Shown: positions 26,742 through 32,760 of the stretch, in pieces
How positions within the stretch are numbered: position 1 is the first letter of the stretch
Layout: every line of letters starts with the position of its first letter
Assembly: GCF_036287215.1 (NCBI RefSeq)
Contig: NZ_CP142860.1
Location: forward strand, 1,736,001-1,800,000
Source: Caproiciproducens sp. CPB-2
GTDB lineage: Bacteria; Bacillota; Clostridia; Oscillospirales; Acutalibacteraceae
Direction of reading: 5' to 3'
Length of the DNA stretch: 64,000 nucleotides
Notes under the pieces: generated by a model
Seen by the model: only the letters and a program-made list of their open reading frames with translations
What the model was told of the DNA's origin: nothing
The model's database searches: none
Program-made: the position numbers and the translations under genes

Positions 26742-27634
26742 TGCTTATGGATAAGATAAACGGTACCATTATAAAAGGTATCGGCGGTTTCTACTATGTG
26801 GAGGCCGCCGATACGCTGTATGAATGCAAAGCAAGGGGCGTGTTCCGGAAAAACAAGGTGACTCCTTTCGTCGGCGACCATGTAACCGTTAGTCTGGAGA
26901 AAGACGGGACAGGCACGATTGAGGAAATACTCCCGCGAAAGAATTCTTTGGTGCGCCCGCCGGTTGCAAACATCGATCAGCTGGTGATCGTCGTGTCGAT
27001 CTGCGATCCGTCCCCCAGCACGCTGGTGATTGACAAAATCATTGCTGCGGCGGAGGACAGGGGGATTGAGCCTGTTATCGTGATCTCCAAAAGCGATTTG
27101 AAAGACTGTCAGTGGCTGAACGACATTTATCAGACGACCGGGATTCCGCTGCTTACGGTTTCTTCGGCTACGGGTGAGGGAATTGAAGAAGTGGAGGAGC
27201 TCCTGAAGGGCAAAATATCCGCTTTTACGGGGAATTCCGGGGTCGGAAAATCCTCTCTTCTGAACAGGATCGATTCGCGTTTCCATCTTCAGACCGGAGA
27301 AATCAGCCAGAAGCTTGGACGCGGCCGCCACACCACAAGACAGGTTGCCTTTTTAAAGCTGGGGGAAAATACCTATGTCGCGGATACGCCGGGCTTTTCT
27401 TCCATCAGTGTGGAACGCTATGATCTGGTGAAAAAGGAAAACCTTCAGTATTGCTTCCGGGAATTTGAACCCTATCTGAATCAGTGCAAATTTGTCTCCT
27501 GTTCCCACACCTGCGAAAAGGGCTGCGCGGTTTTGAAAGCGGTGGAAGAGGGGGCTATCAGTAAATCCCGTCATGAAAGCTATGTCGCCATGTACAATGA
27601 AGTGAAAGATCTGAAAGAATGGAATATGAAATGA
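26741..27634 (+). CDS. rsgA: Ribosome small subunit-dependent GTPase A
   Basis: A 297-aa circularly permuted GTPase for 30S maturation. An OB fold is followed by VISKSDLKD (G4), then GNSGVGKSSLLN (G1) and DTPGFSS (G3), with a C-terminal zinc motif in CKFVSCSHTCEKGC. The start may be ATG 26741, overlapping the prkC stop, or ATG 26747. rpe, which often follows rsgA in Firmicutes, is absent; thiN starts directly in an ATGA overlap. Confidence 0.95.
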   Translation: MLMDKINGTIIKGIGGFYYVEAADTLYECKARGVFRKNKVTPFVGDHVTVSLEKDGTGTIEEILPRKNSLVRPPVANIDQLVIVVSICDPSPSTLVIDKIIAAAEDRGIEPVIVISKSDLKDCQWLNDIYQTTGIPLLTVSSATGEGIEEVEELLKGKISAFTGNSGVGKSSLLNRIDSRFHLQTGEISQKLGRGRHTTRQVAFLKLGENTYVADTPGFSSISVERYDLVKKENLQYCFREFEPYLNQCKFVSCSHTCEKGCAVLKAVEEGAISKSRHESYVAMYNEVKDLKEWNMK

Positions 27635-28254
27635 AAAAATGCGTGATTATCGGTTCGTCGCCCTGCGAATACGGCGGGATTCTGAATGAAATCGATCCTG
27701 ATCATTCTTTTATTATTTGCGCCGACGGCGGTCTGGACGTTGCGCTGGAACATCATCTTACGCCCGATCTGCTCATCGGTGATTTCGACTCTGTAAAAAA
27801 TGAATTGCCGAAGAACATTGAAACCATCCGTCTGAACAAGGAAAAAGACGATACCGACATGATGGCGGCGATCAAGGAAGCGATCAAAAGGGGATACCGT
27901 GATTTTACTCTTTTCGGCGCTCTGGGCGGCAGGATCGACCATTCCTTCTCCAATTTCTGCGCGCTGCAGTATCTGGCTTCCCAGGGCTGTAAAGCGGTGA
28001 TTGCGGACAGGGACTGCCGGGTATTCCTGCTTTCCGGCGGCAGACTGACGCTGAGCGGGCTGAAAGGCCGGACGGTTTCCGTTTTTCCTTTTGGCGTCGG
28101 TTTCTGTACGGTAAGCTACGAGGGAATGAAATATCCGCTCAGGGAAGCGTCTATTTCTTCCGCCTATCCGCTCGGCGTCAGCAATGAGATCACGGAGGAT
28201 CAGGCGCAGATTTTTGTTCACAGCGGAAACGCCCTGATTTTTTTACTGTCATAA
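27631..28254 (+). CDS. thiN: Thiamine pyrophosphokinase
   Basis: A 207-aa enzyme that pyrophosphorylates thiamine to TPP. It has CADGGLDVALEHHLTPDLLIGDFDSV, then the EKDDTDMMAAI substrate motif, and GALGGRIDHSFSN. The ATG at 27631 overlaps the rsgA stop (ATGA). It is the last large gene of the prpC-prkC-rsgA-thiN cluster and lies 5' of spoVM, as in Bacillus subtilis. Confidence 0.94.
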   Translation: MKKCVIIGSSPCEYGGILNEIDPDHSFIICADGGLDVALEHHLTPDLLIGDFDSVKNELPKNIETIRLNKEKDDTDMMAAIKEAIKRGYRDFTLFGALGGRIDHSFSNFCALQYLASQGCKAVIADRDCRVFLLSGGRLTLSGLKGRTVSVFPFGVGFCTVSYEGMKYPLREASISSAYPLGVSNEITEDQAQIFVHSGNALIFLLS

Positions 28255-28289
28255 GCGAACCAAAATCTTTGCCGCTGAATATAATGAGG

Positions 28290-28315
28290 ATAAGACAAAA
28301 GAAATATCGTCTTAT
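28290..28315. repeat. Imperfect inverted repeat between thiN and the 51-aa gene
   Basis: ATAAGAC (28290-28296) and GTCTTAT (28309-28315) are separated by 12 bases; extending outward gives nine matches in ten. There is no T-run. It could be an operator or a weak attenuator for the small-gene pair downstream. Confidence 0.35.
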
Positions 28316-28338
28316 TCTTTATAATGGCGGTGAGCTGG

Positions 28339-28494
28339 ATGTGGCAACGAAATAATTGCTTAATTGCAAAATGCGCGGTTGCTTTTGGGCTCGGGCTGGC
28401 TGCCTCTTGTTTTTGCCCAACGGGATTAATCCTGTTTATAGTAGCGATCATCATGGTCATATTGGGAATCACACTTTTAAGGTGTGGAACATAA
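28339..28494 (+). CDS. Small hydrophobic Cys-containing membrane protein (51 aa)
   Basis: The frame codes for 51 residues: a polar start (MWQRNNCLIAKC), an Ala/Gly/Cys-rich hydrophobic stretch, then a clear membrane segment (TGLILFIVAIIMVILGITLL) and a short RCGT end. Cys residues lie at 7, 12, 24, 26 and 49. The stop is 15 bases before the spoVM ATG, with the spoVM RBS between, so the two are very probably one transcript. Start choice is uncertain: ATG 28339 has a weak GGTGAG, and in-frame ATG 28324 and GTG 28330 are possible. No family is assigned with confidence. Position suggests a sporulation-stage membrane peptide (inference). Confidence 0.65.
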   Translation: MWQRNNCLIAKCAVAFGLGLAASCFCPTGLILFIVAIIMVILGITLLRCGT

Positions 28495-28509
28495 TGGGAG
28501 GTTTGTGAG

Positions 28510-28590
28510 ATGAAAGTAGTCGTTTTGAAGAGCTCGAAATTTTTAGGATTTGTATTACGAAAGTTTTTTAACATAAAAAAAGAAAATTAA
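28510..28590 (+). CDS. spoVM: Stage V sporulation protein M (26 aa)
   Basis: A 26-residue amphipathic peptide, exactly the length of Bacillus subtilis SpoVM. Ungapped comparison from memory shows identity at M1, K2, K7, K10, F11, L12, G13 and R17, with the KFLG core intact. SpoVM inserts into the outer forespore membrane by recognising positive curvature and recruits SpoIVA. The RBS is strong (GGGAGG, seven bases before ATG). Its place after thiN is that of Bacillus subtilis spoVM, and the SipL-like and spoIVA genes follow directly. Oddities: the functionally important Pro9 is Ser here and Gly14 is Phe. Confidence 0.9.
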   Translation: MKVVVLKSSKFLGFVLRKFFNIKKEN

Positions 28591-28600
28591 AAAATGGATG

Positions 28601-28629
28601 CCGGCTGCTGATGCAGCCGGTAATTTTTT
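28601..28629 (+). terminator. Terminator after spoVM
   Basis: CCGGCTGC (28601-28608), loop TGAT, GCAGCCGG (28613-28620), then TAATTTTTTA. It separates the thiN-spoVM transcript from the sipL-like gene, which needs its own promoter. Confidence 0.9.
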
Positions 28630-28639
28630 ATGCGAATGC

Positions 28640-28669
28640 GCATAAACCGTACAAGATTAGAATAACAAT
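28640..28669 (+). promoter_or_regulatory. Candidate SigE-type promoter for the sipL-like gene
   Basis: GCATAAA (28640-28646), 15 bases, then ATAACAAT (28662-28669). This loosely fits the SigE pattern (ATA-containing -35, spacing 14-15, -10 CATACAAT; five of eight -10 bases match). No good SigA promoter is visible in the gap. SigE control is expected from the known regulon of sipL and spoIVA but is not shown by this match alone. Confidence 0.35.
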
Positions 28670-28700
28670 TAGGTAGAAACAGGAAAAGGAGAGAACCTTT

Positions 28701-30236
28701 ATGGATTATATGCTTAACCGTGAGGCATTGGCCACCAGCGAAGTGATTTATGATGGCTGCCAGGAGCAGCCGGTGGATCTCGACATCAGCCTGCCTGACT
28801 ACTGCCCCGATATACAGCGCATTTTAAAATGTCAGGTTTATCCGCACATTACCTCCAGAAGCATTACAGGGGACAGACTGGAACTGGAAGGCAGTTACAC
28901 CGTGAAAATACTCTATCTTGATCCCGGCGGTACGGCTGTTCACTGCTATGAAACCAGTCAGTCGTTTTCCGCCGCCATCCAGTTGAAGCAGGCTGCCGAC
29001 AACGCGCAGATTTTTGCGTTTACCAGGGTGGAATATATTAACTGCCGTGCGACCAGTCCCCGGCGCCTGGACATACACGGTTCTTTTTCCGCATGCGCAA
29101 AAGTAATTGTGCAGGGGGAGAACGAGGTGGTCTCCAACATAGACGGCGAAGGAGTGGAAGAGCAGAAAAGCACACTGTCGATCAACAAGATGGCCGGGTT
29201 CGCTCAGCAGCAGTTTACGGTGGAAGAGGTGCTGGAGCTCGGGCAGGGCAAGCCGCCCGCGGATAGTCTGGTCCGTTCCGACGCGTTTGCGGTGCTTCAG
29301 GACTATACCCCTGTCGCAAACAAGCTGATGATCAAGGGAGAAGTATGTGTAAAATTCCTGTATTCCACAGCGGATAACGAAGCTGCTCTGGAAGTGATGG
29401 AGTACGCACTTCCGTTCAATGAAATGGTTGACTGTGAGGGAGCCTCAGAAAACTGTATCTTCAATATCCAGCTGAATGTTGCCGGGCTGGAAGCACAGAT
29501 CAAAAATGATTATTCCGGTGATCAGACTTACTTTGACGTTCAGGCCAGGGTGTTTGTAAATGCGTCCGCCTATCAGAATTCCGACGTTACTATGGTAACG
29601 GACGCCTATTCCAAGCAGTACGAGCTGAACATCAGCTCCAAACAGAAAAACATCGACAATGCTGTTGAATTCATCAACGATACCGATATTCACAAGGGTT
29701 CTCTGGCACTGGAGGATGTACCGATTTCAAAGATTATCGATATCTGGAATGAAATGAACACTGTTTCCGCCGACTATGCAAACGGACAAATCAATTACAA
29801 GGGGAAATTCAATATCTGTGTGCTTGCCCTGAATCCGGACAATAAGGCGGTCTATTTTGAACGGCTGATGGATTTTGAATATGCCCGCCCCTACCAGGCG
29901 AAAGAGGATCATATCAAATGCAGCGCCTCGATGCTGGTAGCGGGGATCAGCTACCGGATTACGGGCGGCGGAATTGATCTGAAGGTTGAATTAAGGCTCA
30001 GCGCCGGAATTTACAGCCAATACAACCTGAAGCTGATCACGGATGTCGCAGCTGACGAAACCAAACCCAGGGCACAGGACAAATCCGCGGCATTAAGTAT
30101 TTATTACGCCGACGCGGGTGAAAGCTTATGGAATATCGCCCGTGAATACTGCACCTCGGTCAATGCGATTAAACTGGAAAACGACCTTACCGGTGATTTC
30201 GTTGAGAACAGGGGGATGCTGCTGATTCCTATGTAA
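28701..30236 (+). CDS. sipL: SPOCS/DUF3794 and LysM protein, SipL-like coat morphogenesis factor
   Basis: A 511-aa protein with SPOCS (DUF3794) regions (residues about 30-140, beginning VDLDISLPDYCPDIQRILKCQ, with further repeats to about 450) and a C-terminal LysM domain (residues 462-511, DAGESLWNIAREY to LLIPM). This is the architecture of Clostridioides difficile SipL, whose LysM domain binds SpoIVA. spoIVA is the next gene here, 60 bases downstream. No signal peptide is present, which fits a mother-cell cytosolic coat protein. Other DUF3794/LysM paralogs exist in clostridia, so the SipL assignment rests partly on context. Confidence 0.85.
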   Translation: MDYMLNREALATSEVIYDGCQEQPVDLDISLPDYCPDIQRILKCQVYPHITSRSITGDRLELEGSYTVKILYLDPGGTAVHCYETSQSFSAAIQLKQAADNAQIFAFTRVEYINCRATSPRRLDIHGSFSACAKVIVQGENEVVSNIDGEGVEEQKSTLSINKMAGFAQQQFTVEEVLELGQGKPPADSLVRSDAFAVLQDYTPVANKLMIKGEVCVKFLYSTADNEAALEVMEYALPFNEMVDCEGASENCIFNIQLNVAGLEAQIKNDYSGDQTYFDVQARVFVNASAYQNSDVTMVTDAYSKQYELNISSKQKNIDNAVEFINDTDIHKGSLALEDVPISKIIDIWNEMNTVSADYANGQINYKGKFNICVLALNPDNKAVYFERLMDFEYARPYQAKEDHIKCSASMLVAGISYRITGGGIDLKVELRLSAGIYSQYNLKLITDVAADETKPRAQDKSAALSIYYADAGESLWNIAREYCTSVNAIKLENDLTGDFVENRGMLLIPM

Positions 30237-30296
30237 GGATTCCTTGAGAGACATTCGCAATAAAAATTAAATTTCTCTGCCTGAGGGGGAGGTAAA

Positions 30297-31775
30297 ATGG
30301 AAGAACGCAATATTTACAGTGATATTTCCCAGCGCACGAACGGTGATATTTATATTGGGGTGGTAGGTCCGGTAAGAACCGGAAAATCCACTTTTATTAA
30401 GAAATTCATGGATACCATCGTCGTTCCGAACATGGATTCCAACTACAGGCGCGACCGCGCGATCGATGAAATGCCGCAGTCCGCCGCAGGACGTACCATT
30501 ATGACGACGGAACCGAAATTTATTCCGGAACAGGCCGTCAAAGTAAAAGTGGATGACAGCGCCACCTTCTCGGTGCGTATGATCGACTGCGTCGGCTACA
30601 TCGTTCCAAGCGCGCTCGGATACATAGAGAACGATCAGCCGCGCATGGTGATGACCCCGTGGTACGACGAGCCGATTCCGTTCAACATGGCTGCGGAAAT
30701 CGGGACCAAGAAGGTCATTACGGAGCACTCGACTATCGGGCTGGTCGTCACGACCGACGGCAGCATCAGCGATATTCCCCGGGAGGAATACGAGGAAGCG
30801 GAAGAGAGGGTCGTGAAAGAGCTGAAGGAAATCAACAAACCCTTTATTGTCCTTCTGAACTGTACCGACCCGAATTCAAGTCCTGCGGTTTCCATGGCTT
30901 CGCAGATGCAGGAGAAATACAAGGTACCCGTGGCGCCCGTCAACTGCCTTGAAATGGAAGAGGGACAAATCAGGGATATTCTTTCCAAAGTGCTGTTTGA
31001 ATTCCCGGTGAAGGCGATTAAGGTCGACATGCCGCGCTGGCTTTCCAGCCTTGAAAAAAATCATTGGCTGCGTTCCGCTGTCTACGGCACCATCCAGAAT
31101 TCGGCTTCGAAAATCTCCCGGATACGGGAAGTCGGGTCGATTATCAACGATATCAATCAATGCGAATATGTCAGCGGCGCAAAAACCGAATCCATCGATC
31201 TGGGAACCGGCAACGCGCGGGTTGCCGTCAATCTGCAGCCGAATCTGTTCTATAAAATCCTGGGTGAAAAAACCGGTATCGATATTGAGGATGAGGGTGG
31301 GCTCCTCGACAGCATCCTCGGACTTGCAAAAATCCGGGATCAATATAACAAGATCAAAGACGCCTATCAGGATGTGCAGGACACCGGCTATGGAATTGTG
31401 ATGCCGGATATTGAGGAGCTTACGCTCGACGAGCCCGAGATTATCAAACAGGGCGGCAAATACGGGGTGCGTCTGAAAGCGGCGGCGCCTTCCATCCACA
31501 TGATGAAGACGAAAATTACGACGGAGCTGACGCCGATTGTGGGTTCCGAGCAGCAGTCGCAGGATCTGATCATGTATCTGCTGAAGGAATTTGAGGAAAG
31601 CCCCTCCAAAATCTGGGAATCCAATATCTTCGGCAAGAGCCTGCACGAGCTTGTGAACGAGGGCCTGCACAACAAGCTGTACAGAATGCCTACGGACGCA
31701 CGGGATAAGGTGCGCGAGACGATAGAACGGATCATCAATGAAGGCTGCAACGGCCTGATATGCATTATCCTGTAA
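30297..31775 (+). CDS. spoIVA: Stage IV sporulation protein A, coat basal-layer ATPase
   Basis: A 492-aa protein, the same length as Bacillus subtilis SpoIVA. The Walker A motif GPVRTGKST lies at residues 24-32, with Lys at 30 as in Bacillus. The TRAFAC-type NTPase domain occupies the first half, and the middle and C-terminal regions end at the typical CNGLICIIL. SpoIVA hydrolyses ATP to polymerise on the forespore surface, anchored by SpoVM. The RBS is GGGGGAGG. A strong terminator follows. Cotranscription with the sipL-like gene is likely. Confidence 0.97.
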   Translation: MEERNIYSDISQRTNGDIYIGVVGPVRTGKSTFIKKFMDTIVVPNMDSNYRRDRAIDEMPQSAAGRTIMTTEPKFIPEQAVKVKVDDSATFSVRMIDCVGYIVPSALGYIENDQPRMVMTPWYDEPIPFNMAAEIGTKKVITEHSTIGLVVTTDGSISDIPREEYEEAEERVVKELKEINKPFIVLLNCTDPNSSPAVSMASQMQEKYKVPVAPVNCLEMEEGQIRDILSKVLFEFPVKAIKVDMPRWLSSLEKNHWLRSAVYGTIQNSASKISRIREVGSIINDINQCEYVSGAKTESIDLGTGNARVAVNLQPNLFYKILGEKTGIDIEDEGGLLDSILGLAKIRDQYNKIKDAYQDVQDTGYGIVMPDIEELTLDEPEIIKQGGKYGVRLKAAAPSIHMMKTKITTELTPIVGSEQQSQDLIMYLLKEFEESPSKIWESNIFGKSLHELVNEGLHNKLYRMPTDARDKVRETIERIINEGCNGLICIIL

Positions 31776-31797
31776 AATTCATAAAATAAACCGCAAA

Positions 31798-31833
31798 TGT
31801 GATTCGGCAAAATTAGCCGAATCACATTTTTTT
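31798..31833 (+). terminator. Strong terminator after spoIVA
   Basis: TGTGATTCGGC (31798-31808) pairs perfectly with GCCGAATCACA (31816-31826) around a 7-base loop, followed by seven T. Confidence 0.95.
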
Positions 31834-31834
31834 A

Positions 31835-31863
31835 TTGATAAATCTGCTACAAACCTTTATAAT
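31835..31863 (+). promoter_or_regulatory. SigA-type promoter for nfnAB
   Basis: TTGATA (31835-31840), a 17-base spacer and TATAAT (31858-31863) directly after the spoIVA terminator. Start near 31870; the first codon is at 31912. Confidence 0.85.
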
Positions 31864-31911
31864 AAAAAAAGACTATGTTTTACTACTCGTTAAAGAAAAG
31901 GGAGTGTACCG

Positions 31912-32760
31912 ATGTTTACGATTGTGGAGAAGCGGATATTGAATGATTCGATGACATTGATGGCGGTAGAAGCGCCATATATTGCGAAAAAGGCGAAAGC
32001 CGGCCAGTTCATTATTCTGCGTGTCAATGAATTCGGGGAAAGGATTCCTCTGACGGTAGCGGACTACGACCGCGAGAAGGGAACCATCACCATTATTTAT
32101 CAGAAGGTCGGAAAGACGACCCTGATGCTGGATCAGTTGAACGTCGGCGACGCGATTCTGGATTTCATCGGGCCTTTGGGAAAAGCGACCGAGCTGGGGG
32201 GCTACAAAAACGTAGCGGTGATTGGCGGCGGCGCCGGCTGTGCGATCGCGTACCCGCAGGCGAAGGCCCTGCACGGCATGGGCGCGAAGGTGGACATGAT
32301 CGCGGGATTCCGGAATCAGGACATCATCATCCTGGAAGACGAGATGAAAGCGGTCAGCGATCATCTGATCCTGACAACGGACGACGGCTCCAACGGAAAC
32401 AAGGGCTTTGTGACCGACGCCCTGCGTAAAAATATTGAGGACGGGGCAAATTACGACCTGGTCATCGCCATCGGGCCGCTCGTCATGATGCGCGCCGTCT
32501 GCAACCTGACCAAAGAGTACAACATCAAAACGCTCATCAGCATGAACCCCATTATGATCGACGGGACCGGCATGTGCGGCGGATGCAGGCTGACGGTCGG
32601 CGGAAAAACCAAATTCGCCTGTGTGGACGGTCCGGATTTCGACGGCCACGAAGTGGACTTCGACGAGGCCATCAAAAGATCGAGAACCTATTCTGAGTCG
32701 GAAAAAGAAGCGACGCGCGAATACAACTGCCGCTTGATGGAGGGTGCGAAAAATGCCTAA
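31912..32760 (+). CDS. nfnA: NADH-dependent ferredoxin:NADP+ oxidoreductase, subunit A
   Basis: A 282-aa member of the PyrK/ferredoxin-NADP reductase-like family. It has an FAD-binding beta-barrel (RVNEFGERIPLTVADYD), an NAD-binding domain (VIGGGAGCAIAYPQAKAL) and a C-terminal 2Fe-2S site (GTGMCGGCRLTVGGKTKFACVDGP). With NfnB it forms the cytosolic electron-bifurcating transhydrogenase coupling NADH and reduced ferredoxin oxidation to NADP+ reduction. Its end overlaps nfnB by eight bases. PyrK-like or sulfide dehydrogenase labels are less likely, given the glutamate-synthase-like partner. Confidence 0.92.
   Translation: MFTIVEKRILNDSMTLMAVEAPYIAKKAKAGQFIILRVNEFGERIPLTVADYDREKGTITIIYQKVGKTTLMLDQLNVGDAILDFIGPLGKATELGGYKNVAVIGGGAGCAIAYPQAKALHGMGAKVDMIAGFRNQDIIILEDEMKAVSDHLILTTDDGSNGNKGFVTDALRKNIEDGANYDLVIAIGPLVMMRAVCNLTKEYNIKTLISMNPIMIDGTGMCGGCRLTVGGKTKFACVDGPDFDGHEVDFDEAIKRSRTYSESEKEATREYNCRLMEGAKNA

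What the first reader, a model, noticed from the sequence alone, without database searches (positions are those of the whole stretch)
28510..28590. Unannotated 26-aa SpoVM with a substituted proline 9
Seen: a 26-codon frame with a strong RBS, after thiN and before the sipL-like and spoIVA genes. It matches Bacillus subtilis SpoVM without gaps at M1, K2, K7, K10, F11, L12, G13 and R17. Known: SpoVM binds curved forespore membrane and recruits SpoIVA; in Bacillus, Pro9 is important for its shallow insertion and correct placing. Here residue 9 is Ser and residue 14 is Phe instead of Gly. Inference: membrane recognition may work differently in this lineage, perhaps with help from the sipL-like protein or the 51-aa peptide upstream.
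Basis: partly seen in the sequence, partly recalled or inferred. Interest (0 to 1): 0.72.

Follow-up and report, generated by a model that had tools for sequence, protein, structure and literature searches.

The report
Spore-coat anchor peptide lacking invariant proline
This bacterium makes a real version of the tiny SpoVM peptide that anchors the spore coat, but a proline described as invariant is a serine here; relatives have changed that proline many times while the gene stays under selection, which offers natural tests of how the peptide finds curved membranes.

Summary
Window 28510-28590 encodes a 26-aa SpoVM (NF033436, residues 1-26, E 5e-7; 29.6 bits, just under NCBI's cut-off of 31). 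The genus is that of Caproiciproducens. All 11 genomes held of it carry the frame, with pN/pS 0-0.33 in 54 definable pairs. Ser9 is neither unique nor fixed: in the genus residue 9 is Ser in 7, Pro in 3, Gly in 1. Of 243 SpoVMs read, 196 have Pro9 and 47 do not (39 S, 3 T, 2 K, 1 G, 1 H, 1 N). On a SpoIVA tree of 58 genomes residue 9 changed between Pro and non-Pro at least 10 times, all inside one clade in which residue 14 became Phe once. Another family has Ser9 with Lys14, so Phe14 is not required. SpoIVA, SASP and SpoIIID are mostly kept, so decay is not the simplest reading. My model: Ser9 still starts the amphipathic helix, as an N-cap. The 51-aa frame upstream is a predicted two-helix peptide found before spoVM in 182 of 208 loci, mostly beside Pro9 SpoVMs, so it looks like a general companion, not a substitute.

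The parts
28510..28590 (+). spoVM, 26 aa, Ser9 and Phe14
   Evidence: pN/pS 0-0.33
28496..28501 (+). ribosome-binding site GGGAGG of spoVM
   Evidence: a G-rich site stands there in all 11 genomes of the genus, not identical
28339..28494 (+). 51-aa companion gene directly upstream, ends 15 nt before spoVM; hydrophobic, predicted two-helix hairpin (helices 5-23 and 27-50)
   Evidence: AlphaFold2 mean pLDDT 78.4, pTM 0.49
28277..28286 (+). GAATATAATG block; GAATAT is identical in 11 of 11 genomes of the genus; candidate promoter element of the companion-spoVM pair (sigma-E suspected, not shown)
   Evidence: assignment to sigma-E is inference
28599..28631 (+). intrinsic terminator after spoVM
   Evidence: -23.6 kcal/mol, z -5.66; hairpin and T-run in all 11
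28640..28669 (+). GCATAAA-14 nt-AATAACAAT, sigma-E-like promoter candidate of sipL
   Evidence: AATAACAAT identical in 10 of 11, GCATAAA in 9 of 11 (GTATAAA in G001; G003 has other DNA there); consensus recalled
28701..30236 (+). sipL-like gene (two SPOCS stretches, weak LysM)
   Evidence: PF12673 E 1.1e-33
30297..31775 (+). spoIVA, expected partner of SpoVM; Gly at the place of residue 486
   Evidence: TIGR02836 E 4.8e-219
27619..28254 (+). thiN
   Evidence: TIGR01378 E 3.1e-46

Best explanation
This is the functional spoVM ortholog of a Caproiciproducens-group bacterium. Its product is inferred to lie as a short amphipathic helix in the mother-cell membrane around the forespore and to tether SpoIVA. 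Shown: the frame, its descent, its selection, its retained partner genes, and the repeated replacement of Pro9 by Ser, Thr, Gly, Asn, His or Lys in relatives. Inferred: Pro9 matters in SpoVM mainly because it stops the helix from running back into residues 1-8. Here Ser9 (with Ser8) marks the helix start as an N-cap instead, so the mobile N-terminus survives without proline. In the Phe14 clade that swap became nearly neutral, and position 9 drifts among mostly weak helix formers but was never seen as the disruptive Ala. The peptide is probably made from a two-gene transcript with the 51-aa hairpin peptide.
For: Family hit and position next to thiN, sipL and spoIVA. Present in 11 of 11 genomes of the genus; pN/pS 0-0.33 in 54 definable pairs of 55, and 0-0.25 in the 20 definable pairs in which both have Ser9. 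SpoIVA found in 30 of 30 and 29 of 30 genomes asked, no stops inside; Gly at the seventh place from the end, taken as the Gly486 that PMC5607322 links to SpoVM binding (passage), in 56 of 56 long rows. Of 54 genomes asked, 44 of them without Pro9: SASP in 49 (40 of the 44) and SpoIIID over its cut-off in 42. Residue 9 in 47 non-Pro9 SpoVMs: S 39, T 3, K 2, G 1, H 1, N 1; both Lys and the His are followed by Gly10; no Ala, no Leu. All 36 Ser9 codons examined, of 39 Ser9 SpoVMs, are TCN, one step from CCN; Pro to Leu is also a single C-to-T step, yet Leu is absent. G266 lacks Pro9 but has Pro10, while four sisters have Pro9-Pro10 (two of them on the tree). [quoted passage not shown]
Against: No experiment. 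11 of the 47 have neither Gly nor Pro in residues 3-22, so if a rigid break is needed they would fail. Lys9 is not an N-cap residue. Helix moments do not separate the groups in a helpful way: 0.69 for Pro9/other, 0.63 for Pro9/Phe14, 0.51 for non-Pro9/Phe14 and 0.78 for the four non-Pro9/other. Four of the five genomes without a SASP match lack Pro9, though non-Pro9 genomes were 44 of the 54 asked. Spores were reported as not observed in C. galactitolivorans, which has Ser9 (PMC7873966, table passage).
Confidence: 0.5

Rival explanations
1. Relaxed constraint: in this lineage SpoVM is largely dispensable because SipL carries SpoIVA to the forespore, so Pro9 is simply no longer needed and curvature sensing is lost or weak.
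For: In C. difficile SpoVM is largely dispensable and SpoIVA encases the forespore without it (PMC5607322, abstract and passages). sipL is next door here. Residue 9 changed at least 10 times on the tree. Spores not observed in C. galactitolivorans and C. fermentans (PMC7873966). SASP was not found in 4 of 44 genomes without Pro9, and spoIIID is interrupted in G001.
Against: pN/pS 0-0.33. Replacements are confined to S, T, G, N, H and K, with no Ala, Leu, Gln or Arg in 47. SipL is described as a clostridial protein (PMC5607322 abstract), yet Pro9 is kept by 47 of the 50 SpoVMs read outside the family.
Confidence: 0.3
2. Compensation by Phe14: the single Gly14-to-Phe change gave the helix a new membrane or SpoIVA contact that replaces the work of Pro9.
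For: Phe14 against other residues changes once on the SpoIVA tree, and the Pro9 changes counted there lie inside that clade (52 Phe14 rows, only 6 others). In the window's family 43 of 44 non-Pro9 SpoVMs read have Phe14. None of 110 Gly14 SpoVMs read lacks Pro9.
Against: One origin of Phe14 means the link is a single event, so any other trait of the clade would fit as well. Three SpoVMs of another family have Ser9 with Lys14 and G144 has Asn9 with Cys14. 45 Phe14 SpoVMs keep Pro9.
Confidence: 0.3
3. The 51-aa upstream peptide replaces Pro9 in membrane recognition.
For: It lies directly upstream in 43 of 43 Phe14/non-Pro9 loci. In family f42 a frame of this kind is seen before the three Ser9 genes and not before the two Pro9 genes read.
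Against: It is also there in 41 of 44 Phe14/Pro9 and 93 of 120 other Pro9 loci, and was not found in the single non-Pro9 locus without Phe14 in that set. It is found in other families with Pro9.
Confidence: 0.1
4. The frame is a chance match or a dead gene.
For: It scores under the curated cut-off.
Against: Conserved in 11 of 11 genomes of the genus with synonymous changes in excess; a terminator follows it in all 11.
Confidence: 0.01

Closest known systems
SpoVM of Bacillus subtilis (NF033436)
   Same: 26 residues, basic amphipathic peptide, downstream of thiN (B. subtilis order recalled), expected partner SpoIVA
   Different: Ser9 for Pro9, Phe14 for Gly14; a companion peptide gene upstream; sipL and spoIVA next door (that the companion is missing in B. 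subtilis is recalled, not tested)
SpoVM and CD25622 of Clostridioides difficile (PMC5607322)
   Same: spoVM directly downstream of a 50-aa gene; a SipL and SpoIVA pathway exists
   Different: By the Fig. 1 legend Pro9 is conserved there; CD25622 was reported as primarily conserved among Peptostreptococcaceae.
SpoVM P9A of B. subtilis (PMC12004969 and PMC4307972, passages)
   Same: loss of the same proline
   Different: made in the laboratory and mislocalised; the natural replacements read here are S, T, G, N, H and K, never Ala, in genes that, where tested (the genus), are under selection
DUF6249 (PF19762)
   Same: weak matches of 6 of 42 companion peptides, best E 7e-6
   Different: the window's peptide does not match; probably shared hydrophobicity

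Membership tests
SpoVM (NF033436) | full-length match to the family profile | tested here: met
   1-26 of 26, E 5.1e-7
SpoVM (NF033436) | curated score cut-off of 31 bits | tested here: not met
   29.6 bits. Eight of the 11 genomes of the genus are over it, with Pro9, Gly9 and Ser9 among them, so membership rests on descent. It is filed as a variant.
[quoted passage not shown] 1 legend) | tested here: not met
   Ser9. 47 of 243 SpoVMs read lack it, so I do not treat it as a defining feature.
SpoVM (NF033436) | position after thiN | tested here: met
   the B. subtilis order is recalled
SpoVM (NF033436) | SpoIVA partner present, with Gly at residue 486 | tested here: met
   the residue number is taken from the length (492), not from an alignment with B. 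subtilis
SpoVM (NF033436) | mother-cell expression under sigma-E | not testable with these tools
   a conserved promoter-like block only
SpoVM (NF033436) | preference for convex membrane; binding of SpoIVA | not testable with these tools
   needs an experiment
CD25622-like companion of spoVM | ~50-aa gene directly upstream of spoVM | tested here: met
   28339-28494; 182 of 208 loci
CD25622-like companion of spoVM | sequence homology to CD25622 | not tested

The most novel reading that the evidence does not exclude
The proline break of SpoVM is not needed for its work. In Acutalibacteraceae, and separately in one other clostridial family, a Ser, Thr or Asn N-cap, or a Gly or Pro one residue on, sets the helix start. 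In Clostridia SpoVM is moreover one half of a two-peptide membrane unit with an unnamed hairpin protein encoded just upstream, which moves with it into new gene neighbourhoods (after thiN here, after holA in another family).
Probability: 0.35. Interest if true: 0.66.

Novelty: new variant of a known kind. Interest (0 to 1): 0.5.

Why it matters
SpoVM is a textbook case of a very small protein that finds micron-scale membrane curvature, and Pro9 is the residue on which the structural explanation leans. A published alignment calls it the only fully conserved residue. Here it has changed at least ten times on the tree of one family, while in the genus tested the gene stays under selection; one species has proline at position 10 instead. 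Sister species with and without Pro9 give matched peptides for vesicle and bead assays. The companion peptide, found in most loci read across the order and without an NCBIfam model, may be a missing part of the clostridial coat basement layer.

Tried and rejected
Phe14 as a strict requirement: rejected by Ser9/Lys14 in family f42 (G475, G597, G617) and by Asn9/Cys14 in G144.

The companion peptide as a special Pro9 substitute: not favoured because most Pro9 genomes have it too; the f42 loci are an exception.

'Ser9 unique to this genus': rejected once the SipL-based loci were read.

Decay of sporulation as the whole explanation: not favoured, though not excluded.

Solved structures: no relevant match. 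Rfam: none at gathering score in 27000-32000. Helical moment: no useful difference. Literature: no paper with 'SpoVM' plus 'proline 9'; only PMC5607322 with 'SpoVM' plus 'Pro9' and with 'CD25622'. A search for phrases on what lies upstream of spoVM matched 4 papers; two of them (PMC3533761, PMC5607322) were read in passages for other points, none was checked for this. A wider search (646 papers matched, 20 listed) gave nothing new on Pro9 by title and abstract. The primary papers on P9A (PMC6311346, PMC4403194, PMC2652684) are not held, so P9A is cited from passages of PMC12004969 and PMC4307972.

Full report
What is there. Window 28510-28590 holds a 26-codon frame, MKVVVLKSSKFLGFVLRKFFNIKKEN, with GGGAGG 8 nt before the ATG. 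The NCBI family SpoVM_broad (NF033436) matches it from end to end with E 5.1e-7 and 29.6 bits; the curated cut-off is 31, so an automatic pipeline would probably not name it (the last point is inference). Upstream lie genes that I read from their sequences as priA, def, fmt, a zinc-peptidase-like gene, rsmB, rlmN and prpC (no family search), then a PASTA kinase gene and rsgA, thiN and a 51-aa frame. Downstream lie a SipL-domain gene and spoIVA. Most of this order, down to thiN and spoVM, is the one I recall from B. subtilis.

Which organism. The genome itself is unnamed. Loci fetched with the SipL-like protein name its neighbours: 'Amazonia massiliensis' MS4 (96% identity), Caproiciproducens faecalis (90%), C. 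galactitolivorans (74-75%) and others. Caproiciproducens is in Acutalibacteraceae; that the family code f1 of the genome search is this family is inference.

Is it a gene. All 11 genomes held of the genus have it. Pairwise pN/pS is 0-0.33 in 54 of 55 pairs (0-0.25 in the 20 definable Ser9-Ser9 pairs); the last pair, G000-G010, has no synonymous change. A terminator hairpin (-23.6 kcal/mol, z -5.66 for the window) follows it in all 11, and the GAATAT block before the companion gene is identical in all 11; the spoVM RBS is G-rich in all 11, though not identical.

Residue 9 in relatives. I read SpoVM from 243 genomes: 178, G147 from the same call, 30 low-scoring ones chosen as a check against bias (the 30 that came with loci of the 49 genomes searched), 27 from the class search and 7 more. 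By my count 193 are in the window's family and 50 outside. Not all family hits were read: one search found a match at E <= 0.01 in 295 of 398 family genomes. Dropped before the count: the weak hits of G020, G026, G051 and G057, which do not look like SpoVM, three further weak hits of the window's own genome, and repeats of genomes already read. Result: Pro 196, Ser 39, Thr 3, Lys 2, Gly 1, His 1, Asn 1. Family: 44 of 193 without Pro9; outside: 3 of 50. In the genus: Ser 7, Pro 3, Gly 1. [quoted passage not shown] 1 legend, section 6 read).

Residue 14. Of 110 Gly14 SpoVMs none lacks Pro9. Of 88 with Phe14, 43 lack it. Of the other 45, four lack it: G144 (Asn9/Cys14) and three of family f42 (Ser9/Lys14). 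The A1 profile that supplied most of the Phe14 set favours Phe14, so these are not population frequencies. The 30 low-scoring family genomes, picked without regard to residue 9, are all Pro9. A search of 391 class genomes with A1 gave 21 with a match; outside the family it brought the f42 Ser9 cases and no Phe14 among the rows that I read.

Tree. SpoIVA from 58 of the 60 genomes asked (G142 had none; G144's gene is split over two contigs) gives one change to Phe14 and at least 10 changes between Pro9 and other residues, 15 if all residues are told apart. Only 6 of the 58 rows are not Phe14, and f42 is not in the tree. Supported sister pairs that differ: G224/G296, G060/G067, G073/G078, G003/G006, G008/G004, and G266 in one clade with G062 and G185. 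Direction is not settled by the counts: with Pro9 ancestral there are many losses, otherwise fewer losses and some regains. The tree warns of a long-branch join (G109 with G166), which matters for those two.

What replaces proline. Never Ala in 47, the laboratory change that mislocalises SpoVM (PMC12004969 and PMC4307972, passages), and never Leu, although Pro to Leu and Pro to Ser are both single C-to-T steps. Ser, Thr, Gly and Asn (44 of 47) are residues that cap helices (recalled); the two Lys and the His are each followed by Gly10. One species has Pro10 without Pro9 (G266), which resembles the re-introduction of proline at positions 7-13 described in the review. 11 of 47 have no Gly or Pro in residues 3-22, so if a break is needed there it must come from Ser.

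Is sporulation still running. SpoIVA was found in 30 of 30 genomes (G005's match covers residues 1-453) and in 29 of 30 (partial in G148 and G144), with no stops inside. For SASP and SpoIIID 54 genomes were asked, 44 of them without Pro9. SASP: 49 of 54; missing in G005, G009, G304, G110 and G224, four of which lack Pro9. SpoIIID: a match in 53 of 54; 42 are over the cut-off, 4 more are nearly full length (G073, G107, G224, G418), 6 are partial (G001, G008, G009, G022, G302, G359), G005's hit is too weak to count and G267 has none. Against: spores were not observed in C. galactitolivorans, C. fermentans and strain 7D4C2, although sporulation genes were noted (PMC7873966, table passage).

The companion gene. 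A hydrophobic frame (46-69 aa, median 49) ends a median of 17 nt before spoVM in 182 of 208 loci. With a stricter rule it is 169 of 206, against 0 of 206 on the reverse strand and a mean of 0.4 (maximum 3) in shuffles. With the rule it is in 43 of 43 Phe14/non-Pro9, 41 of 44 Phe14/Pro9, 93 of 120 other Pro9 and 0 of 1 other loci. In the class set a frame of this kind is in 17 of 27. A profile of 42 members scores 12 of 19 frames from other families at 20 bits or more; the other 7 score under 13, some no better than shuffles, whose best of 379 scored is 8.4. In family f42 the three Ser9 loci have such a frame (profile scores 20.4, 12.7 and 5.0), in two of them scanned just after holA, so it seems to move with spoVM; the two f42 loci with Pro9 that I read (G502, G574) show none. 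Its pN/pS in the genus is 0.23-0.65 in the nine definable pairs with G000, weaker than for spoVM. No NCBIfam model fits any of the 42; Pfam gives DUF6249 weakly for 6 of 42. The prediction is a two-helix hairpin, mean pLDDT 78.4, pTM 0.49. In C. difficile a 50-aa gene of unknown function, CD25622, is co-transcribed with spoVM (PMC5607322, passages); homology could not be tested.

Reading. The peptide is a SpoVM variant under selection. The claim that membrane recognition differs is open. The helper role of the 51-aa peptide is not supported as a special substitute, but the peptide deserves attention as a general partner of SpoVM.

Noticed in passing
It resembles the skin element of sigK; G007 and the window's genome have intact spoIIID. 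Of 24 papers matched, the 12 listed (titles and starts of abstracts seen) name sigK, spsM, gerE, yabG or hlyII as targets where they name one, not spoIIID.
   Followed up: partly
window 28339-28494 and 182 of 208 loci read: An unnamed hydrophobic two-helix peptide is encoded just upstream of spoVM across the order, and by profile in some other clostridial families, with no NCBIfam model.
   Followed up: partly
L337, L338, L339 (family f42): A separate clostridial family has SpoVM with Ser9 and Lys14 and with a companion-like frame, placed after holA in the two loci scanned with families; two f42 loci with Pro9 lack the frame.
   Followed up: partly
L198 (G266), L143 (G185), L166 (G062), L156 (G327), L157 (G376): One genus carries Pro9-Pro10 in SpoVM in four genomes read; a fifth, G266, has Ser9-Pro10, a natural one-residue shift of the proline.
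   Followed up: no
G008:C3:830-1903 and G008:C3:3-107: G008 has a second, distant SpoIVA-like piece (43% identity, residues 135-492) and a partial SASP on one contig; contamination of that assembly is possible.
   Followed up: no
L022 (G003): G003, the only Gly9 member of the genus, has other DNA after its spoVM where the others have sipL, and its spoIVA lies on another contig.
   Followed up: no
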